Source: Methylohalobius crimeensis 10Ki (GTDB lineage Bacteria; Pseudomonadota; Gammaproteobacteria; Methylococcales; Methylothermaceae). From it: DNA of 64,000 nt. The stretch lies in NCBI RefSeq assembly GCF_000421465.1, contig NZ_ATXB01000001.1, positions 1,860,001-1,924,000 of the forward strand, written 5' to 3'. A program made the position numbers and the translations under genes. The notes under the pieces were generated by a model, which saw only the letters and a list, made by a program, of their open reading frames with translations, had not been told where the DNA came from and made no database searches. Position 1 is the first letter of the stretch; each line of letters starts with the position of its first letter. Below are positions 26,104-36,111 of the stretch, piece after piece.

Positions 26104-26210
26104 ATGGCCAAACTATCAGACGCCAAGATCAAAAACGCCAAGCCGGGAGACAAGCTGTATAAGCTCTACGACGAGAAAGGCTTGTTCATTATCGTAACCC
26201 CGAGCGATTT
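26104..26210 (+). pseudogene. N-terminal stub of a P4-type tyrosine integrase
   Basis: The translation from ATG 26104 (MAKLSDAKIKNAKPGDKLYK, then LYDEKGLFIIVTPS) is the arm-binding N-terminus (DUF4102) of phage P4/SsrA-type tyrosine integrases. The family sequence stops matching after about 34 residues, and the frame ends at 26280 with unrelated residues. The catalytic domain is gone, so the island cannot excise with its own enzyme. Position and direction relative to tmRNA are as expected for an ssrA-targeting integrase. Confidence 0.8.
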
Positions 26211-26276
26211 CTTCAGTCGAGTCTTGGCCATTACCGAATGGCAGGCGTTGGTCTCGGACGAGCATTCAAAAGCTTC

Positions 26277-26408
26277 GTGAAGAAAGACGGCAGCGGGCCG
26301 GACAAGCCGCCGGGACGGCGACTCGGCCAATACGCCGTCACCTGGCAAGACGGCAAATCCGTCGTTAAGGGCGAGGATGCGCCGAGCGCGAATGACAATG
26401 GTCATTGA
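26277..26408 (+). pseudogene. C-terminal fragment related to the 61-aa zeta-partner protein
   Basis: In this frame the sequence ends GRRLGQYAVTWQDGKSVVKG, then EDAPSANDNGH and stop. That parallels the end of the small protein at 35623-35808 ([19 protein letters not shown], then [11 protein letters not shown]). At DNA level I estimate about four-fifths identity, so it is an older paralogue rather than a recent copy. The N-terminal half is missing or replaced; a GTG at 26277 could start a 43-residue remnant. It abuts the integrase stub, consistent with a deletion joining two island fragments. Confidence 0.6.
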
Positions 26409-26418
26409 AAGACATCAT

Positions 26419-26759: not shown

Positions 26760-27629
26760 ATGAAAATCGAACAAGTACCATCGCGGGCATGCGGTGGAAA
26801 TTTGTGAAGATGGCGTTATTGCCCCTGCCATGGCACAGAAGCATTGATCAAGAAAGAAAACTGGTATGGATGATTTCCAACTACTCATAGACCTCCACCG
26901 ACCTGCCGAACGGCAAGGACCCGGCGGAAAAGCTGAAACAAAACAGGCGCTGGAACTGGCCGGACTCGACCGATCGCGCCCATTGAAGATCGCGGATATT
27001 GGCTGCGGCACCGGCGCATCGACCATTACCCTTGCCAAGGAGCTGGATGCCGACATCACCGCCGTGGACTTCTTGCCGGAATTCCTCGACGAGCTTCAAT
27101 CCAGAGCCAACGACCATGGCGTGGCGGACAGGATCACCACGCTGAACTGCTCCATGGATGCCCTGCCATTTGAGGAAGGTGAGTTCGACGTGATCTGGTC
27201 CGAAGGGGCCGTCTACAACATGGGTTTTGAGGCCGGGGTATCCGTCTGGAGCCGATTCCTGAAGCCCGGGGGAAAGCTCATCGTTTCCGAGATCACCTGG
27301 CTCCGCGCCACGAGACCGGCGGAGCTCCAGTCCCATTGGGAAATTGAGTACCCGGAGATCGATCTCGCTTCGGCAAAGATCGGAATCCTTGAGCGGCATG
27401 GCTATAGCCCGCAAGGTTACTTTGCCCTGCCGGTGCATTGCTGGCTTGAGAATTACTATCGCCCCCTACAGAGCCGATTTGATGCGTTCCTTCAGCGGCA
27501 TGGCCGAAGCGATCAGGCCAAGGCTGTCGTCGAAGCGGAACAGCACGAAATTGCCCTTTATGAAAAATACCGTGACTACTACAGCTACGGCGTTTATGTG
27601 GCAAAAAAGGTGTGAGGCATGACGACTCG
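26760..27629 (+). repeat. Direct repeat copy 1: small ORF + methyltransferase cassette
   Basis: This segment matches 29672-30543 over its whole length, with roughly a dozen substitutions, one 3-base indel and one single-base indel. Homology begins exactly at an ATG and ends just after the methyltransferase stop (GACGACTCG). In this copy the leading small ORF has an early TGA at 26805-26807 and the methyltransferase is intact. Confidence 0.9.
26866..27615 (+). CDS. Class I SAM-dependent methyltransferase (intact copy)
   Basis: 249 aa. Rossmann methyltransferase with motif I IADIGCGTGAST, motif II acidic residue in ITAVDFLPEF, NCSMDALPF, and motif IV WSEGAVYNMGF, followed by FLKPGGKLIVSEITWL. 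The nearest general family is Methyltransf_11/25; the substrate is unknown. Only a weak ribosome site (AGAAAG) precedes ATG. In the second copy the start overlaps a small upstream ORF, so translational coupling was probably the original arrangement. A frameshifted second copy lies at 29781-30529. Confidence 0.88.
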   Translation: MDDFQLLIDLHRPAERQGPGGKAETKQALELAGLDRSRPLKIADIGCGTGASTITLAKELDADITAVDFLPEFLDELQSRANDHGVADRITTLNCSMDALPFEEGEFDVIWSEGAVYNMGFEAGVSVWSRFLKPGGKLIVSEITWLRATRPAELQSHWEIEYPEIDLASAKIGILERHGYSPQGYFALPVHCWLENYYRPLQSRFDAFLQRHGRSDQAKAVVEAEQHEIALYEKYRDYYSYGVYVAKKV

Positions 27630-27834: not shown

Positions 27835-28125
27835 ATGAACAGACAGCGAGCCCTTGAGCTGTTGAGCCACAGCAAGCCGGAGCTGCAGGTCCGTTTCGGC
27901 GTGACCCGGCTGGCCCTGTTCGGCTCCACCGCCCGTGACACGGCGACCAGCGGCAGCGATGTCGATGTGCTGGTGGCCTTCGACGGTCCGGCCACATCCA
28001 AGCGTTATTTCGGAGTGCAGTTCTATCTGGAGGACCTACTCGGTTGCCCGGTCGACCTGGTCACCGAAAAGGCCCTGCGGCCAGAACTGCGCCCCTATAT
28101 TGAACAGGAGCGGGTCAATGTCTGA
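27835..28125 (+). CDS. MNT-type nucleotidyltransferase (antitoxin of a HEPN/MNT pair)
   Basis: 96 aa. The minimal nucleotidyltransferase signature is complete: LFGSTARDTATSGSDVDVLV, with Gly-Ser and the two metal-binding Asp residues. MNT proteins neutralise HEPN RNase toxins, in characterised cases by AMPylating them. GGAGG lies 7 bases before ATG. Its stop overlaps the start of the HEPN gene (ATGTCTGA, 8 bases), the usual mntA-hepT layout. Because the HEPN partner is broken, the pair may now be silent. Confidence 0.87.
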   Translation: MNRQRALELLSHSKPELQVRFGVTRLALFGSTARDTATSGSDVDVLVAFDGPATSKRYFGVQFYLEDLLGCPVDLVTEKALRPELRPYIEQERVNV

Positions 28126-28474
28126 TGCCAGCCAGCGCGAATGGCGCTTCTACCTCGACGACATGATCGACTTCGCCGGAAAGGTACTCGCCTACACTGA
28201 CGGCATCGATCAGGCCGGTTTCGTGGCCAGCGGCCTGACCTACGACGCTGCCCTGCGCAACCTGGAACTGATCGGTGAAGCCGCCACCCATATCCCGGAC
28301 TAAGTCCGCGCCGCCCATCCTGAAATCCCCTGGCGGATGATCATCGCCACCCGCAACCGCCTTATTCACGGCTACTTGGGCATCGACGACGACACCCTGT
28401 GGAGCATCATCCAAGATGACGTGCCTGAACTGCTGCCGCTGCTCAAGGCACTGAAAAACGAGGCGCAGTCATGA
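28118..28474 (+). pseudogene. HEPN (DUF86/HepT-like) toxin with an in-frame stop codon
   Basis: ATG 28118 opens a DUF86 HEPN protein (REWRFYLDDMIDFAGKVLAY ... RNLELIGEAATHIPD). TAA at 28301-28303 interrupts codon 62; the same frame then continues without shift through VRAAHPEIPWRMIIATRNRL and IHGYLGID to TGA at 28472-28474. The RNase motif RxxxxH (RNRLIH) lies after the stop. The intact length would be 118 residues, normal for the family. A single base change (GAA to TAA) would explain it. It is inactive unless the stop is read through. Confidence 0.85.
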
Positions 28475-28821
28475 AACCCGGCAGCGTCAAGATTGTCGAC
28501 CGCGTCTCCGCCATCGAGGCATCAAGCGATTGGCAGTTCTCCACCGGCCGCCTGATCGGTGAAGGCTTCGACCATCCGCCGCTCGACACGCTGGTGCTGG
28601 CCATGCCGATCTCCTGGAAGGGAACCTTGCAGCAATACGCCGGACGCCTACACCGGGAACACGTCGACAAGCAGGATGTGCGCATCTACGACTATGCCGA
28701 GACTGATCAACCCCGGCTTGCCCGCATGTGGGACAAACGCCAGCGCGGCTATAGGGCCATGGGATACGAGATCAAACCGATGGAGACCGTAGTTTTAGGA
28801 AACGGCACGAACCTAAAATAA
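28471..28821 (+). pseudogene. C-terminal remnant of a superfamily 2 helicase
   Basis: 116 residues open from an ATG overlapping the HEPN stop. Residues from about 23 on carry the end of an SF2/COG1061-type helicase: STGRLIGEGFDHPPLDTLVL (motif V) and GTLQQYAGRLHRE (motif VI with QxxGRxHR). Motifs I-IV and any nuclease domain are missing. The first 20 residues do not match. It is probably a deletion scar from a restriction-type helicase gene. Confidence 0.75.
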
Positions 28822-28877: not shown

Positions 28878-29012
28878 CTACTTGATCAGATCCACTTGAT
28901 CCACCATCTCCATCACAAATCGGGCCAGATGATCTTCCGGCAGATAGTCCTGGATGCTCGGTGGAAGCAAATAAGGGGTGTCGCGATCTACGGGGACAAA
29001 CTGGACAGCCAT
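28878..29012 (-). pseudogene. 5' stub of an IS1182-like transposase
   Basis: From ATG 29010-29012 the translation MAVQFVPVDRDTPYLLPPSI, QDYLPEDHLARFVMEMVDQ is the N-terminus of IS1182/IS5-like transposases, cut after 44 residues by a stop. No terminal inverted repeats or catalytic DDE region are present. The stub runs opposite to its neighbours and ends just before the toxin operator. Confidence 0.75.
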
Positions 29013-29031
29013 ATTTTCGCCTATCGAAAAA

Positions 29032-29049
29032 TATACAAAATTTTGTATA
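29032..29049. promoter_or_regulatory. Palindromic operator overlapping the toxin-antitoxin promoter
   Basis: TATACAAAATTTTGTATA is a perfect 18-bp palindrome. Its right end overlaps a consensus -10 box TATAAT at 29046-29051. A start site would fall near 29058, directly at the toxin ATG (29059), giving a leaderless message. This fits autorepression by the HTH antitoxin. Confidence 0.65.
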
Positions 29050-29058
29050 ATTAACCGC

Positions 29059-29397
29059 ATGCCGAAACGCAAACCACTTAGTTTTCTTGGAAGCGCCCTT
29101 TCAGATCTTCGAAGTTTTCCAGCGGCGCCTAAACAAGAAGCCGGTCACCAGCTCGACCAAGTGCAACGAGGACTTGATCCGGACCACTGGAAGTCGATGA
29201 ATACGATAGGCCCGGGTGTTCGGGAAATTCGGATTCAGGATGCCGAGGGTGCGTTTCGTGTGATCTATATTGCCAAGTTCGAGGAGGCCATCTATGTTCT
29301 GCATTGCTTCCAGAAAAAAACCCAGAAGACCAGTAAAGCAGACCTCGATCTTGCGAAAAGGCGATACCGAGAGTTGATCAATGAGGTGAGACGGTGA
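29059..29397 (+). CDS. HigB/RelE-type toxin (Gp49-like, DUF891)
   Basis: 112 aa. The pattern KPLSFLGSALSDLRSFP, GHQLDQVQRGLDPDHWKSM, GVREIRIQDAEGAFRVIYIA and YVLHCFQKKTQKTSKADLDL is that of phage Gp49-like HigB toxins, ribosome-dependent mRNA endonucleases. Family members begin just at this MxxxKPLxF, supporting ATG 29059 even though almost no leader is left after the predicted promoter. Its stop overlaps the antitoxin start by 4 bases (GTGA). Both partners look intact, so this may be a working module. Confidence 0.88.
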   Translation: MPKRKPLSFLGSALSDLRSFPAAPKQEAGHQLDQVQRGLDPDHWKSMNTIGPGVREIRIQDAEGAFRVIYIAKFEEAIYVLHCFQKKTQKTSKADLDLAKRRYRELINEVRR

Positions 29398-29675
29398 GTA
29401 ACGAGACGTTTGAAAGTGTGTGGGATGCTCTTGAAGACACGGTGGCGGAAGCGGAAAGCATGAAGCTCCGGTCGAGCCTGATGATCGTGCTCAAGCAGCA
29501 CATAAAGCAAAAAGGTTGGACCCAGGCGGAAGCGGCCCGGCGACTCGGGATCACGCAACCACGTGTTTCGGATCTCATGCGTGGAAAAATTCAGCTTTTT
29601 GGCCTTGATGCCCTAGTGAACATGGCGGCATCCGCGGGATTGCATGTCGAGTTGCAAGTCTTGAATGCTGCATGA
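29394..29675 (+). CDS. XRE-family antitoxin (HigA-like)
   Basis: 93 aa from a GTG start overlapping the toxin stop. An N-terminal acidic helix region is followed by a Cro/C1-type helix-turn-helix (KGWTQAEAARRLGITQPRVS, DLMRGKIQLFGLDALVNMA). Antitoxins of this type bind their toxin and the operator; the palindrome at 29032-29049 is the obvious site. Its stop overlaps the ATG of a 38-codon ORF that leads into the second methyltransferase copy. Confidence 0.87.
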   Translation: MSNETFESVWDALEDTVAEAESMKLRSSLMIVLKQHIKQKGWTQAEAARRLGITQPRVSDLMRGKIQLFGLDALVNMAASAGLHVELQVLNAA

Positions 29676-29788
29676 AAAATCTCGAACAAGTACCATCGCG
29701 GGCATGCGGTGGAAATTTGTGGAGATGGCGTTATTGCCCCTGCCATGGCACAGAAGCATTGATCAAGAAAGAAAACTGGTATGGATGA
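29672..29788 (+). CDS. Possible 38-aa cysteine-containing peptide upstream of the methyltransferase
   Basis: ATG 29672 overlaps the antitoxin stop (ATGA), and TGA 29786-29788 overlaps the methyltransferase start (ATGGATGA), so it sits in a fully coupled chain. The peptide contains SRACGGNLWRWRYCPCHGTE, with three Cys and a His that could hold a metal. In the other repeat copy the homology also starts at its ATG, and the length difference near the start is exactly three bases, which suggests coding. I do not recognise a family, and it may be only a leader. Confidence 0.3.
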   Translation: MKNLEQVPSRACGGNLWRWRYCPCHGTEALIKKENWYG

Positions 29789-30529
29789 TTTCCAACTACT
29801 CATAGACCTCCACCGACCTGCCGAACGGCAAGGACCCGGCGGAAAAGCTGAAACAAAACGGGCGCTGGAGCTGGCCGGACTCGACCGATCGCGCCCATTG
29901 AAGATCGCGGATATTGGCTGCGCACCGGCGCATCGACCATTACCCTTGCCAAGGAGCTGGATGCCGACATCACCGCCGTGGACTTCTTGCCGGAATTCCT
30001 CGACGAGCTTCAATCCAGAGCCAACGACCATGGCGTGGCGGACAGGATCACCACGCTGAACTGCTCCATGGATGCCCTGCCATTTGAGGAAGGTGATTTC
30101 GACGTGATCTGGTCCGAAGGGGCCGTCTACAACATGGGTTTTGAGGCCGGGGTATCCGTCTGGAGCCGATTCCTGAAGCCTAGAGGTAAACTCATCGTTT
30201 CCGAGATCACCTGGCTCAGCGCCACGAGACCGGCGGAGCTCCAGTCCCATTGGGAAATTGAGTACCCGGAAATCGATCTCGCTTCGGCAAAGATCGGAAT
30301 CCTTGAGCGGCATGGCTATAGCCCACAAGGTTACTTTGCCCTGCCGGTGCATTGCTGGCTTGAGAATTACTATCGCCCCCTACAGAGCCGATTTGATGCG
30401 TTCCTTCAGCGGCATGGCCGAAGCGATCAGGCCAAGGCTGTCGTCGAAGCGGAACAGCACGAAATTGCCCTTTATGAAAAATACCGTGACTACTACAGCT
30501 ACGGCGTTTATGTGGCAAAACAGGTGTGA
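29781..30529 (+). pseudogene. Frameshifted copy of the class I methyltransferase
   Basis: Nearly identical to the intact gene at 26866-27615, but one G is missing near 29921 (GGCTGCGCACC instead of GGCTGCGGCACC). The shift falls inside the SAM-binding motif I and destroys it. The downstream frame is open from 29978 to the stop at 30527-30529 and retains the rest of the enzyme without its cofactor loop. Several neutral substitutions separate the copies, so the duplication is not brand new. A sequencing error in a short GC run cannot be excluded. Confidence 0.85.
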
Positions 30530-30543
30530 GGCATGACGACTCG

Positions 30544-30957
30544 AAGGGGGGAGAAAATTGTTTCTCTGGTCGGGTTGGCGGAAAGTGGTTGATACTCTTC
30601 ATGATTCCGTCAAACAGGTCGTTGATGCTTATGGTCGGTCGCTCCTCGTTGTGAATTTTGATTGCTTCCCCGCTTACTTACCGGAGAGACGGAGACAAGT
30701 CCGCAGGAGAGCGGATTTGGACGTCCCTGAGGACGCCCGCAGGGTGAGCGCCATGGATGGCGCGAATCACAGTGTCGGGCGTCAGCTGATTTTTTTATGC
30801 TGGCTTTCTGAGGGCTTACTTACCGGGTGGCGTTGGGATGTGTCGGAAAAATCCCGCAACTGGTCAAATTTCCTGTTTTCTTCTTGTCTTTATAGATGGC
30901 CAGGGTTATTTTTCTTTATCAATTTTTTACTACGAATCTCTTCCGAACGGTGAGGTC
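30544..30957. other. Non-coding segment with short repeats
   Basis: 414 bp before the HTH gene. No convincing protein is encoded. It holds a 13-bp exact direct repeat, GCTTACTTACCGG, at 30672-30684 and 30814-30826, and a near-perfect hairpin GCGCCAT-GG-ATGGCGC at 30748-30763. The last 100 bases are AT-rich and probably contain the promoter of the restriction operon. Confidence 0.5.
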
Positions 30958-31155
30958 ATGGATACATACGACAAATGGCTGACCATTGATGAACTGGCGG
31001 GCTACATCAAGATGAGCAGGACCAAGCTCTACGGCATGGCCCAGCGCGGCGAGGTTCCCGCTTCCAAGATCGGCAACCAGTGGCGTTTCGACCGGGAGGA
31101 GATCGATCAGTGGATGAAGGCGCACGGGACCGGCAAAGGGGGAATCAAGGAATGA
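30958..31155 (+). CDS. Excisionase-type helix-turn-helix protein
   Basis: 65 aa from ATG 30958 (GGTGAGG 3 bases upstream). One HTH_17/MerR-like DNA-binding domain: WLTIDELAGYIKMSRTKLYG, MAQRGEVPASKIGNQWRFDR, EEIDQWM. Proteins of this kind act as excisionases or small regulators and often precede restriction-modification genes. Its stop overlaps the start of the large R-M gene (ATGA), so it probably controls or is co-expressed with it. Confidence 0.85.
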   Translation: MDTYDKWLTIDELAGYIKMSRTKLYGMAQRGEVPASKIGNQWRFDREEIDQWMKAHGTGKGGIKE

Positions 31156-34100
31156 TCAGTCAGGACAATTTCATCGCGCTGCTGGACTTCCTCGGCTTTG
31201 CCAAGAATAAATCCATTTACAGCAAGACGATTGGCGCAACCTCTTTAAGTGTCGATGTCACCAAGCAGACCATCCATTACCCGGAGTCTGACGGGCTGGT
31301 CGTGAACGAACGCCAGACCTGCAACTTTACGGCGAATGAGAACTTTGTGGTGTTCGAGTGTGTTCATCGTCTGCTGGACAAAGGCTACAAACCGGAACAC
31401 ATCGAGCTGGAGCCAAAATGGAAGCTGGGCCGCGGCGCCAGCGGCGGCCGCGCCGATATTCTGGTCAAGGACAATTTCGGCAAGCCGCTGCTCATCATCG
31501 AGTGCAAAACTGCCGGGGCCGAGTTCAAAAAAGCCTGGAACAAGACCCTGCAGGACGGCGACCAGCTTTTCAGTTACGCACAACAGATCAGCGAGACCCA
31601 GTTTCTTTGCCTCTACACCTCGGATTTTGAAAACGCCGAACTGAGCTACCAGAGCCATATCATCGCCCACCGCGACAACGACCAGTATCTGGTCGCCAAT
31701 CCGCACTTCAAACCCTTCCGCAGCGTCACCGACGTCAAGGAGAGATTCGCGGTCTGGCGCGATACCTACAAACTCGACTTCACCACCAAGGGGATCTTCG
31801 AGGACAACATCCAGCCCTACCAGATCGGCAAGGACAAGTATTCCTTGGCTGATCTGCACGCCATTTCCGCCTCGGATCAGCAGAAGAAATATCATGAGTT
31901 CGCGACCATTTTGCGTCAGCACAACGTATCGGGCCGGGAAAACGCCTTCGACAAGCTGGTGAACCTGTTTCTCTGCAAGCTGGTGGACGAGATCGAGAAC
32001 CCCGACGACCTCAAGTTTTACTGGAAGGGTGTCGCCTACGACAGCCATTTCGATCTGATGGATCGCCTGCAGCAGCTCTACCAGTCGGGCATGGACAAGT
32101 TCCTCGGCGAGGACATCACCTACATCAATCAGAACGATGTCAATAACGCCCTGCGCTTCATCCGCCAGAATCCGGACGCCACCCAGCGGGCGGTGTGGAA
32201 TCTGTTCATTCAGCAGAAGTTTTTCACCAACAACGACTTTTCCTTTATCGACGTCCACAACGAACGGCTTTTTTACCAGAACGCCGACGTGCTGCTAAAA
32301 CTCCTGCAAATGTGGCAGGACATCCGCCTGACCAACCCCAACGGCCACAACCAGTTTCTCGGCGACATGTTCGAGGGCTTCCTCGACCAAGGCATCAAGC
32401 AGAGTGAGGGGCAATTTTTTACCCCCATGCCCATCTGCCGCTTTGTCCTGATGAGCCTGCCACTGGAAAGCCTGGTGCGCGACAACCCCACGCCGCCCAT
32501 GGCCATCGATTACGCCTGCGGCGCGGGCCATTTCCTCACCGAACTGGCCTTGCAGCTTCAACCCCTGCTCAAACAGCACAAGCCCCAGGCCAACCCGGCC
32601 GAATACCACAAATCGATGGTCGGCATCGAAAAGGAGTACCGGCTCTCCAAGGTCGCCAAGGTATCCGCCTTCATGTACGGCCAGCAGGGCATCCAGGTCT
32701 GCTACGGCGATGGCCTGGTGAACAGCCACGAGGCCTTTCCCGACATCCGCGACGGCCATTTCGACCTGCTCGTCGCCAATCCGCCCTACAGCGTGCGCGG
32801 CTTTCTCGAAACCCTGCCCGAGGAGGAGCGCAAGGCCTATTCGCTCACCGACACCATCAACGACGCCGAGACGGCCAACAGCATCGAGACCTTCTTTGTC
32901 GAGCGGGCCAAGCAGTTACTGAAGAGCGACGGCGTGGCCGCCATCATCCTGCCCTCGTCGATCCTCTCCAACGGCGGCTCCACCTACATCCGCGCCCGCG
33001 AAATCCTGTTGCAGTATTTCGATATCGTCGCCATCGCCGAATTCGGCAGTGGCACTTTCGGCAAGACCGGCACCAACACCGTCACCCTGTTCCTGCGCCG
33101 CAAGCCGACCCAGCCCGACACCGCCGAGCACTACCGCGAACGGGTGGAGGAATGGTTCAAGGGCTGCGCCGCCAGCAAGCGCAAGCAGGCGATCTACAAG
33201 GACGGCCACCTGATCGAGCAGTATTGCGCCCATATCAATGTGCCCCTGGCCGATTACCAAAGCCTGCTGCGCGGTGAGACGGAGGGAAGCTGGAAGCCGC
33301 AGGAGCATTTCCAGCCCTATCACGACAAGTTCGACAGGAGCACCGAGCTGGTCAACCTGCGCAAGCAGAAGAAATTCAAGGCCCTAAGCAAAGCCGAACA
33401 GACGGCGGAGATCGCCAAGCGCTACCTGGCCTATGTGCAGTCCATCGAGCGCGACAAGCTCTATCACTTCTGCCTCGCCTCGGATCAGAGCAACCCGGTG
33501 CTGATCATTCGCAGTCCGTCCGGAACCAAGGAGATCAAGCAGTTTCTCGGTTACGAGTGGAGCAGCGCCAAGGGGGATGAAGGCATCAAGCTCATCGAGG
33601 ACGCCGCTGGCCGCCACATCACCGCCCTGTACGACGGCCCGGACCACGCCAACCCGATGCGCTTTACCCGCGCCAACCCGGCCAAGCTCAGCGGCCACAT
33701 TGCCGCGAATTTCGATGGGACACTTGGGACGATTCCGGCTGAATTGAGCGAGGTGGCCAACCCGGCACGGTTGGTGGATATGCTGGATTTTTCCCAAACA
33801 GTATTCGAAAAACAGTTCTCGCTTGTAGTCCGTGCCAGCCTCACGTCCGTCACAAAGTGGCCGCAAATGCCAATCCGACAGGTTGCGGTGTTGAATCCGC
33901 GAAAGAGTGAGTTGAAAGGTGTTTCTGCCTCAACAGAAATATCTTTCGTTGAAATGGCCTCTGTGAGCGAGGATGGTTTTATCACCGGTGCGGTCCCTAG
34001 AAAACTTGGAGAAGTATTGAAGGGCAGCTACACCTACTTTGCCGAGGACGACATCATCATTGCAAAGATTACCCCTTGCATGGAAAACGGCAAATGCGCA

Positions 34101-35018
34101 CTTGCAAGAGGATTAAGCAATAAGATCGGGATGGGAAGCTCTGAGTTTCACGTCATTCGTGCGGATAAAGGAAAGGTTCTTCCTGACTATGTTTTCGGCT
34201 ACTTGAATAGAGCGGAGGTCAGGAAAGTTGCCGAGAAAAACATGACTGGTTCAAGCGGCCACCGACGAGTCCCTGAATCGTTCTATGCCGACCTGAGAAT
34301 CCCGGTACCGCCCCTCAAGGTTCAATCGCAAATTTGTGACGACTTCACAAAGGTTGACAAAGCTGTTCAATCTGCAAGAACCAAGATCGCCAGCACGCAA
34401 CAATCTATCGAACTACTTGTTGAGTCCATCTACGCCTCCACCGCCCCCCGCATCGAAATCGCCAAGCTGAGCACCAACATCCAATACGGCCTGAACGAGA
34501 AGATGAACGAGGCCGGTATCGGCTACAAGATTTTCCGCATGAACGAGATCATTCAGGGGCGGATGGTGGACAACGGCGCGATGAAGTGCGCCGACATCAG
34601 CGCCGAGGAGTTCGCCAAGTACCGGCTTAACAAGGGCGATTTACTTTTCAACCGCACCAACAGCATCGAGCATGTCGGCAAGACCGGCCTCTTCGATCTG
34701 GACGGCGACTACTGTTTTGCCTCCTACCTGGTTCGCGTGGTGCCCGACACCAGCAAGATACTGCCGTTGTTCCTCGTCAAAATGATGAATTCTCCGGCCT
34801 ATCAAGCTGAGGCCAAGGGCAAGGCTTCAAAGTCGATCAACCAGTCCAACATTAACGCCACCGTGATGAAAAACATCAAGGTGCCGGTTCCCTCCCTGGC
34901 CGAACAGAAAAAATTCGTCGCCAAGGTCGAGGATCTGGAAAAACAGATCACCGAGGCACAGGCCATCATCGACACCGCCCCCGCCCGCAAAGAGGCGGTG
35001 ATGAAAAAGTATCTGTGA
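31152..35018 (+). CDS. Single-chain restriction-modification enzyme (nuclease + N6-adenine methylase + specificity domains)
   Basis: 1288 aa from ATG 31152. The N-terminus is an HsdR_N-like PD-(D/E)xK nuclease: GRADILV (Asp102) and IIECKT (Glu117, Lys119). The centre is an HsdM-type N6-adenine methylase with motif [13 protein letters not shown] (near residue 455) and motif IV NPPYSV (Asn543). The C-terminus carries two HsdS-like target-recognition units, about residues 900-1090 and 1096-1288, each followed by a helical spacer (ending [14 protein letters not shown] and [15 protein letters not shown]). No helicase/translocase motor is present, so it should act as a type IIG/IIC-like enzyme, not classical type I. 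It overlaps the HTH gene by 4 bases. Confidence 0.9.
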
Positions 35019-35026
35019 GGGGTGAC

Positions 35027-35626
35027 ATGAGCGCGCAACGAAACGACAATACCAACCCCACCTGCTGGATCATCGCCGGGCCCAACGGCGCGGGAAAAAC
35101 CACCTTCGCCTTGGAGTACCTGCCGAAGGCTGCGGGTTGCACCCATTTCATCAACGCCGACCTGATCGCTGCCGGGCTCTCGCCGCTGGCCCCGGAGCGG
35201 GAGTTGCTGGCCGCTAGCCGTCTCTTTCTGCGCGAGATCGAGGAACGCATTACAGCCCACGAGAATTTCGCCTTTGAAACCACCCTGGCCGGGCGTACCT
35301 ATCTGCGGCTGGTCGAGCGGTTGCGTGCCGATGGCTGGCGGGTGGAACTGATCTATCTAGCCCTGCCCAGCGTCGAGATGTCCAAACTGCGTGTCGCCGA
35401 ACGGGTCGCCCACGGCGGGCACAACATCCCGGTGGCGGATGTCGAACGGCGCTTTCCCCGCAGCCTGCGCCATCTTTTGAACGATTTCAGCCATCGCGTC
35501 GATAGCTGCACCTGCTTCATGAACAACGGGGAAAGCCCGGTGCTGGTTTTCGAACAGCGCGACAGTGAACGCGATATCTTGCATGACGACTTCTATCAGC
35601 TTCTGCTTGAGGAGGCCAAACAATGA
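35027..35626 (+). CDS. Zeta-toxin-like P-loop protein
   Basis: 199 aa from ATG 35027 with GAGGGG just upstream; a GTG at 35015 would overlap the R-M gene. Walker A is [13 protein letters not shown] (residues 17-29), then [14 protein letters not shown], a switch-like [14 protein letters not shown] and [14 protein letters not shown]. This is the COG4185/zeta-like kinase group. Zeta toxins phosphorylate UDP-sugars, but many homologues are uncharacterised. It overlaps the next small gene by 4 bases, a typical toxin-antitoxin layout, and is in one transcript with the restriction enzyme. Confidence 0.82.
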
Positions 35627-35808
35627 CTACCAAACGAAAAACCACGCCATCTCCGGAAGGGCTGCGGCAGTTGGAAACGCTGCGTCAGGCCGTCGGCAAG
35701 ACGCTGGAGAAAAAGCGCCGGTTGGGCCAGTACTCCGTGACATGGCAGGATGGCAAGCCGGTCGTGAAGGGTGAGGATGCGCCGGGTGCGAATGACAACG
35801 CTCATTGA
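35623..35808 (+). CDS. 61-aa partner of the zeta-like protein (candidate antitoxin)
   Basis: ATG overlaps the stop of the zeta-like gene (ATGA). A basic N-terminal half ([20 protein letters not shown]) leads into a short beta-like tail, [19 protein letters not shown], ending [11 protein letters not shown]. No known domain is recognised. A diverged C-terminal fragment of the same family lies at 26277-26408, at the other end of the island. Coupling to a zeta-like gene suggests an antitoxin or regulator; this is inference. Confidence 0.65.
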
Positions 35809-35819
35809 ATGGTGAGCTT

Positions 35820-36111
35820 ATGAGCGTCTACCAGCCGCCCTACACCATCACCCCCGAGATCCTGAACCGGGTCGCCGCGATCAGCGAGGCCATCGGGCGG
35901 CTGACCGTGCTCACCGATGATGACGCGGCAATAGCTCAAAGAGGCGCTTGGGCTGAAAGACGATGAGCATTTCCGCAAGGCCTATCTGCTCCCCGCTTTG
36001 GATTCCGGACTGATTGAAATGACCATCCCCGACAAGCCGTGCAGCAGCAAACAGAAATACCGACTGACCGACAAGGGACGCCAGCGACTGGCGCAGTTTG
36101 GCGGTGGATAA
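35820..36111 (+). pseudogene. Fic-family gene with its catalytic core deleted
   Basis: ATG 35820 gives YQPPYTITPEILNRVAAISE, AIGRLTVL, the N-terminus common to Fic/DOC proteins, and then runs into TGA near 35963. In another frame the sequence continues with LGLKDDEHFRKAYLLPALDS, GLIEMTIPDKPCSSKQKYRL to TAA at 36109-36111, the winged-helix end of the same family. The HxFxxGNGRxxR centre is absent. An internal deletion with frameshift has removed about two thirds of the gene. Confidence 0.78.

What the first reader, a model, noticed from the sequence alone, without database searches (positions are those of the whole stretch)
30958..35808. Four-gene coupled operon: HTH, helicase-free R-M-S fusion, zeta-like P-loop protein and a 61-aa partner
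HTH/R-M and zeta/61-aa overlap by 4 bases, and the zeta-like gene starts 8 bp after the R-M stop. The restriction enzyme joins an HsdR_N nuclease (Asp102, Glu117-x-Lys119), an HsdM methylase and two HsdS units in one chain with no translocase motor. Linking such an enzyme to a zeta-like protein and a small partner suggests a restriction system with a built-in abortive or addiction module. The link between the two halves is inference.
Basis: partly seen in the sequence, partly recalled or inferred. Interest (0 to 1): 0.6.

Follow-up and report, generated by a model that had tools for sequence, protein, structure and literature searches.

The report
Restriction enzyme with a docked toxin pair
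A one-piece bacterial DNA-cutting defence enzyme is followed, in the same run of genes, by a toxin-like kinase and its tiny partner; the kinase pair looks like a separate movable module that also turns up beside other kinds of DNA-defence genes, so the parts are familiar in kind but the way they are stacked is informative.

Summary
An HTH gene (30958-31155), a 1288-aa R-M-S chain (31152-35018), a zeta-like kinase (35027-35626) and a 61-aa ORF (35623-35808) lie in one tightly spaced run. The R-M-S chain is an ordinary single-chain type IIB/IIG enzyme with conserved catalytic residues. The proposed unit "this R-M fusion plus zeta" is not supported: among 83 fetched homologues none has a zeta gene next in line on its strand (0 of 47 with the gene's 3' end and at least 300 bp beyond), and the nearest relative (about 90% DNA, also beside ssrA) has a DUF559 gene there. 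The zeta/61-aa pair is its own bicistron: 7 of 7 intact close zetas have the small ORF with the same 4-base overlap. The module recurs in other R-M loci (HsdS-zeta-small-HsdR; DUF4391-zeta-small-methylase) and before TOTE and Fic genes. A methylase gene lies within 5 kb of it in 4 of 29 other genomes, 0.5 expected. Best reading: a mobile zeta-type toxin-antitoxin-like cassette docked behind the specificity part of a type IIB enzyme in a decaying ssrA-linked island. Toxicity, neutralisation and coupling to restriction are untested. New variant of a known kind.

The parts
30958..31155 (+). HTH_17 / excisionase-type small DNA-binding protein, 65 aa; probable regulator (inference)
   Evidence: a 92% identical homologue directly upstream of the R-M relative in L073
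31152..35018 (+). single-chain R-M-S enzyme, 1288 aa: nuclease (about 50-230), N6 adenine methylase (about 400-660), two target recognition domains (about 900-1095 and 1100-1288)
33852..34450 (+). first target recognition domain; GC3 0.48-0.56 against 0.82 in the R-M body; identity to the L073 relative ends near its start; probably exchanged
35027..35626 (+). zeta-like P-loop kinase, 199 aa: [12 protein letters not shown] (Asp45), ETT and GGH motifs
35623..35808 (+). 61-aa partner; single-sequence model gives one helix (11-33) and a beta hairpin (37-50); probable antitoxin (inference)
35820..36111 (+). remnant of a Fic gene: stub 35820-35966 (no Pfam match; start like the Fic of L181, by eye) and a Fic-like_C piece from 35935 in another frame
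   Evidence: Fic after broken zeta and small ORF in L181
25585..25949 (+). tmRNA (ssrA), left landmark of the island
26104..26211 (+). likely start of a tyrosine integrase, truncated (Arm-DNA-bind_3 19.9 bits, below the cut-off of 27)
26316..26409 (+). second, truncated copy of the 61-aa gene (3' half, 80% DNA identity)

Best explanation
Two modules were joined in a decaying, ssrA-linked defence island. Module 1 is an HTH regulator plus a single-chain type IIB/IIG R-M enzyme that methylates adenines at a split site and cuts unmodified DNA. Module 2 is a zeta-like kinase with a 61-aa helix-hairpin partner: a self-contained toxin-antitoxin-like pair that can land directly behind specificity modules, as it does between HsdS and HsdR of type I loci. 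Here its start lies at the end of the R-M frame, so it is probably made from the R-M message. Most likely working: the small protein binds and silences the kinase; loss or arrest of the operon frees it, and it phosphorylates a target and stops growth, which helps keep the island and may abort infections that beat the R-M enzyme. Shown: gene order, overlaps, family assignments, conserved catalytic residues, recurrence of the pair, its absence beside relatives of the R-M fusion. Inferred: toxicity, neutralisation, shared mRNA, substrate, any phage role.
For: R-M enzyme: PADLOC type IIG model matched over 1-1288 with 1779 bits; best PDB sequence match RM.BsaXI; catalytic residues conserved in 69 sequences. 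Separate modules: zeta next in line on the same strand in 0 of 47 usable fusion loci, small ORF in 0 of 83; the L073 relative has HTH and R-M 0.7-0.9 kb after ssrA and then DUF559. Zeta pair as a unit: zeta in 30 of 299 genomes at E<=1e-25 and small ORF in 17 of 299 at E<=0.001, window's genome included; 7 of 7 intact zetas with at least 60% identity have the small ORF with a 4-base overlap; small ORF open beside a broken zeta in L159, L160 and L182, and in L178 fused to a zeta fragment. Docking: HsdS-zeta-small-HsdR in L157; HsdM-HsdS-zeta-133 aa-HsdR in L170; helicase-DUF4391-zeta-small-methylase in L164; HsdS-nucleotidyltransferase-zeta-59 aa on Synechocystis pSYSG. Methylase within 5 kb in 4 of 29 genomes, 0.49 expected, P=0.0013. 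Fold: top Foldseek hits AvrRxo1-ORF1, PezT and zeta; Z 15.1-15.7 to 1gvn, 3q8x, 2p5t and 4z8v.
Against: No toxicity or neutralisation data. The small ORF also occurs without zeta: after HsdS (L017), after HsdR (L183), before a methylase (L186). In 25 of 29 genomes no methylase match lies within 5 kb of the zeta. Two of the four linked genomes share a genus; with three, P=0.012. The zeta of one of the four, L170, is cut short by an in-frame stop. Of 16 more distant zetas (41-52% identity) only 8 have a recognisable small ORF after them, judged by eye. Both genes are broken in L158, L179 and L181, which is neutral. Polynucleotide kinases tie with zeta toxins by Z, so the substrate is open. The link between the two kinds of small ORF is weak (hhalign probability 10.6%).
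Confidence: 0.6

Rival explanations
1. A truly integrated, PrrC-like system: the zeta kinase is held inactive by the R-M protein itself and released when a phage inhibits or bypasses restriction; the small protein is only a helper.
For: Zeta starts at the end of the specificity module here and in type I loci L157 and L170. Precedent: PrrC is silenced by a linked type I enzyme and activated by a phage anti-restriction factor (abstract of PMC2610378).
Against: The same pair occurs away from R-M genes in most surveyed genomes (25 of 29 without a methylase match within 5 kb), and 0 of 47 R-M fusion relatives carry it next in line, so neither seems to need the other.
Confidence: 0.15
2. The 61-aa protein is an accessory of R-M or other DNA-defence genes rather than the antitoxin of zeta, and zeta is a kinase with a metabolic or nucleic-acid end-processing role.
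For: Small ORF without zeta after HsdS (L017), after HsdR (L183), before an N6_N4 methylase (L186). Polynucleotide kinases have the same Z as zeta toxins.
Against: 7 of 7 intact close zetas keep the small ORF with the same overlap. Two Nostoc plasmid zetas have a downstream ORF that aligns with the 61-aa family at 21-28% identity, and no R-M gene is listed within 5 kb (that gene table is incomplete).
Confidence: 0.15
3. Chance stacking of passengers in a decaying island; the zeta pair has no present function.
For: Integrase, Fic, a nearby HEPN-like gene (by eye) and a second small ORF are broken. Zeta is broken in several other loci.
Against: All four genes of the run are open over their full length, with conserved catalytic residues and tight overlaps.
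Confidence: 0.1

Closest known systems
Single-chain type IIB R-M enzymes AloI and TstI (PMC4027205, passages read)
   Same: nuclease, methylase and specificity functions in one chain, no translocase
   Different: sequence relation to AloI/TstI not tested (no sequence at hand); cutting pattern unknown; a zeta pair follows here
RRDM island, rptR-hsdM-hsdS-DarTG2-hsdR (PMC12255303, abstract and passages read)
   Same: small regulator first, R-M next, a toxin-antitoxin pair directly after the specificity gene
   Different: type I three-gene R-M and DarTG2 there; fused type IIB/IIG enzyme, HTH_17 protein and a zeta pair here; homology of the HTH to RptR not tested
epsilon/zeta, PezAT, AvrRxo1-ORF1/ORF2
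   Same: predicted kinase fold, P-loop and catalytic Asp
   Different: partner is a 61-aa protein encoded downstream; epsilon and PezA are encoded upstream, AvrRxo1-ORF2 downstream (positions recalled)
Rv0366c-Rv0367c non-canonical PezAT pair (PMC6362051, passages read)
   Same: zeta-like kinase with P-loop and Asp
   Different: antitoxin there is an upstream 129-residue protein with a ribbon-helix-helix domain
Synechocystis pSYSG defence island (PMC4963859, passages read; record)
   Same: zeta and a 59-aa ORF after HsdS; the paper lists five TA-related genes there that missed its criteria (that these include this pair is my inference from gene order)
   Different: a nucleotidyltransferase lies between HsdS and zeta; separate type I genes
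PrrC with EcoprrI (abstract of PMC2610378 read)
   Same: toxin gene linked to an R-M locus
   Different: anticodon nuclease silenced by the type I enzyme; no such dependence shown here

Membership tests
Single-chain type IIB/IIG R-M enzyme | R, M and S in one chain | tested here: met
Single-chain type IIB/IIG R-M enzyme | no ATP-dependent translocase | tested here: met
   no helicase family
Single-chain type IIB/IIG R-M enzyme | conserved nuclease and NPP[YF] methylase residues | tested here: met
Single-chain type IIB/IIG R-M enzyme | cuts on both sides of a split site (IIB proper) | not testable with these tools
   needs digestion
Single-chain type IIB/IIG R-M enzyme | sequence homology to AloI/TstI themselves | not tested
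   sequences not at hand; RM.BsaXI matched
Zeta toxin family | Pfam Zeta_toxin above gathering score | tested here: met
   35.2 against 22.3 bits
Zeta toxin family | zeta/PezT fold | tested here: met
   two-sequence alignment, best model mean pLDDT 80, the other four 69 to 53; polynucleotide kinases tie
Zeta toxin family | UDP-GlcNAc kinase activity | not testable with these tools
   needs assay
epsilon/zeta or PezAT module | antitoxin of the epsilon or PezA kind encoded upstream | tested here: not met
   the upstream gene is the R-M enzyme; the small ORF is downstream and matches no such family
Type II toxin-antitoxin pair | toxin neutralised by a bound small protein from the same operon | not testable with these tools
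   pairing and polarity are consistent
RRDM-type R-M locus with embedded toxin-antitoxin pair | pair between hsdS and hsdR genes | tested here: not met
   R, M and S are one gene here; L157 and L170 do have it
MADS | MAD1 above NCBIfam cut-off, with the other MAD proteins | tested here: not met
   HTH 67.6 against 80 bits; MAD2 and MAD5 models far below cut-off on the R-M chain; only the four proteins were tested in PADLOC

The most novel reading that the evidence does not exclude
A largely undescribed zeta-kinase toxin-antitoxin family whose antitoxin is a downstream helix-hairpin protein of about 60 aa. It docks, translationally coupled, behind specificity genes or beside methylases of several R-M types, and before TOTE and Fic genes, giving two-tier loci that restrict first and halt the cell if restriction fails.
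Probability: 0.25. Interest if true: 0.6.

Novelty: new variant of a known kind. Interest (0 to 1): 0.42.

Why it matters
How one defence module comes to sit inside another is a current question. This locus places a zeta-type module behind a single-chain type IIB/IIG enzyme, and the survey shows the same kind of module behind HsdS and beside an N6_N4 methylase. That makes the pair easy to test as a portable back-up to restriction, and offers a candidate antitoxin for a group of short zeta kinases.

Tried and rejected
MADS membership: the HTH resembles MAD1 but is below the cut-off, and the MAD2 and MAD5 models score far below theirs on the R-M chain. Empty-site test at ssrA: contigs of several near relatives end soon after ssrA, and the window's right-flank genes were not found in the relatives searched beyond two short matches; no second copy of the ssrA end in the window at up to 3 mismatches; inconclusive. 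Viral contigs: 3 relatives of the R-M fusion, none confirmed for zeta or the small protein with single-sequence queries. Plasmids: no R-M fusion match at E<=1e-100. Three searches of two families meant to enlarge the survey gave the same hits again. Operator search before the HTH gave only short repeats. Profile comparison of the two kinds of small ORF was weak.

Literature: searches showed no paper that describes a zeta gene with this small partner docked in an R-M operon. Only open-licence PMC papers are in the library, and hits were judged from listings and passages; no paper was read whole. PMC4963859 comes close for the Synechocystis case.

The 4 of 29 were read off the listings, rechecked, and leave out the window's genome; the expected value uses rounded genome sizes and one zeta per genome. 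G117 (HsdS-zeta-small-HsdR, methylase off the contig) is not in the 4. L156 was left out of the 7 intact zetas because its contig ends there. L174 was not counted as broken because a contig end is near. The HTH profile was built from 5 sequences, 4 of them from the loci it then found again.
Full report
What is there. The four genes are present at the stated coordinates and overlaps. The first encodes a 65-aa HTH_17 protein. The second encodes a 1288-aa chain with an HsdR_N-type nuclease, an N6 adenine methylase and two specificity domains, without a helicase family. It matches a PADLOC type IIG family end to end, and RM.BsaXI is its best match among solved structures by sequence. In 69 aligned sequences Asp102, Glu117, Lys119, the GxGHF motif and NPP[YF] are nearly or fully invariant. 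The third encodes a 199-aa zeta-like kinase, and the fourth a 61-aa protein without a known family.

Is the R-M fusion tied to the zeta pair? A scan of one genome per species found 241 stretches that encode relatives; the best 80 were kept, and viral contigs gave 3 more. In these 83 loci one zeta gene was found, in L094, on the opposite strand about 660 bp on, and no relative of the 61-aa protein. Of the 47 loci with the 3' end of the gene and at least 300 bp beyond it (42 with at least 1000 bp), none has a zeta gene next in line on the same strand. Neighbours of the R-M gene look diverse by eye in the loci printed (part of that printout was cut). An HTH homologue lies directly upstream in 5 of the 78 loci with at least 300 bp upstream, one of them degenerate. 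The nearest relative, L073, is about 90% identical in DNA over most of 30772-33824, lies beside ssrA as here, is broken by frame changes, and is followed by a DUF559 gene. So HTH plus R-M behaves as one module and the zeta pair as another.

The zeta pair as a module. The zeta is found in 30 of 299 genomes of the phylum sample at E<=1e-25, the small ORF in 17 of 299 at E<=0.001, the window's genome included in both. All 7 intact zetas with at least 60% identity (L151-L155, L157 and the window) are followed by the small ORF with a 4-base overlap. Of 16 more distant zetas (41-52% identity) 8 have a small ORF of another kind in the same place, judged by eye (L161-L166, L170, L171). Two Nostoc plasmid zetas have one that aligns with the 61-aa protein at 21-28% identity. 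The small ORF is open beside a broken zeta in L159, L160 and L182, and fused to a zeta fragment in L178; both genes are broken in L158, L179 and L181; no intact close zeta lacks the small ORF. That is the polarity expected of toxin and antitoxin, but numbers are small and some genomes are close kin. AlphaFold gives the 61-aa protein one helix and a hairpin (single sequence, mean pLDDT 74, pTM 0.40). It gives the kinase a zeta-type fold (two-sequence alignment; best model mean pLDDT 80, the others 69 to 53) whose top Foldseek hits are AvrRxo1-ORF1, PezT and zeta, with polynucleotide kinases tied by Z.

Where the module sits. In R-M loci: HsdS-zeta-small-HsdR with 4-base overlaps throughout in L157; HsdM-HsdS-zeta-133 aa-HsdR in L170, where the zeta is cut short by an in-frame stop; HsdS-nucleotidyltransferase-zeta-59 aa on Synechocystis pSYSG. 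In L164 the order is helicase-DUF4391-zeta-small-N6_N4 methylase; L161 has DUF4391-zeta-small-methylase, L162 zeta-small-methylase with a helicase upstream, and L163 DUF4391-zeta-small. In L151, L152 and L159 the pair comes before a protein of about 190 aa and a TOTE primase-helicase; in L180 the small ORF alone comes before a split TOTE gene. In L181 a broken zeta and small ORF are followed by Fic, as the window's pair is followed by a Fic remnant. The small ORF without zeta lies after HsdS in L017, after HsdR in L183 and before an N6_N4 methylase in L186. Methylase domains lie within 5 kb of the zeta in 4 of 29 genomes other than the window's (G006, G097, G153, G165) against 0.49 expected from their genome-wide numbers, P=0.0013; two share a genus, and with three P=0.012. 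In the other 25 there is none within 5 kb.

Mechanism. Shown: order, overlaps, families, conserved residues. Inferred: one message; silencing of the kinase by the 61-aa protein; growth arrest when the operon is lost or blocked; methylation and cutting by the R-M enzyme. The RRDM island is the closest published arrangement, a small repressor followed by a type I R-M with DarTG2 between hsdS and hsdR; its authors call that site a potential recombination hotspot (PMC12255303, passages). Two other genes embedded in a type I locus were shown to be an anti-phage system (PMC11411939, passages). A PrrC-like link, with the toxin held by the R-M enzyme, stays open at low probability (PMC2610378, abstract). 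For Synechocystis pSYSG a published survey already names a defence island with type I R-M genes and five TA-related genes that missed its criteria; that the zeta pair is among them is my inference from gene order (PMC4963859, passages).

The setting. The run lies 5 kb after ssrA in a stretch with a probable integrase start, a second truncated copy of the 61-aa gene, a duplicated methyltransferase gene, a nucleotidyltransferase gene and a Gp49/HTH pair, several of them broken. The first target recognition domain has GC3 of 0.48-0.56 against 0.82 in the R-M body, and identity to L073 ends near its start, so it was probably exchanged.

Verdict. Correct observation; the specific link claimed is not supported; the zeta pair as a mobile module that docks at R-M loci is the more interesting finding. 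New variant of a known kind, interest 0.42.

Noticed in passing
window 26767-27307 and 29682-30221: A SAM-dependent methyltransferase gene is duplicated at 98-99% DNA identity, flanking the nucleotidyltransferase and Gp49/HTH genes; the second copy is split over two frames.
   Followed up: partly
window 27835-28480: Nucleotidyltransferase gene whose protein is 78% identical to the one beside zeta on Synechocystis pSYSG; the gene after it, read by eye as HEPN-like, is cut by an in-frame stop.
   Followed up: partly
window 28978-29675: Gp49-like toxin and HTH_37 antitoxin-type pair.
   Followed up: no
window 33852-34450: First target recognition domain has much lower GC3 than the rest of the R-M gene, a sign of domain exchange.
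   Followed up: partly
L171 7855-8767: A zeta gene with a VbhA antitoxin ORF upstream and a small ORF downstream, both overlapping it by 4 bases.
   Followed up: no
L170 5246-5647: The small ORF after zeta continues into a HicB-like antitoxin domain (29.2 bits, cut-off 27).
   Followed up: no
L018 11805-14318 and L098 11769-14282: R-M fusion with an upstream HTH is followed by an 837-aa protein with an AAA_5 domain, possibly another docked partner.
   Followed up: partly
L151 1416-5177: Zeta-small pair directly before an unknown 190-aa protein and a TOTE primase-helicase; the same order in L152 and L159.
   Followed up: partly
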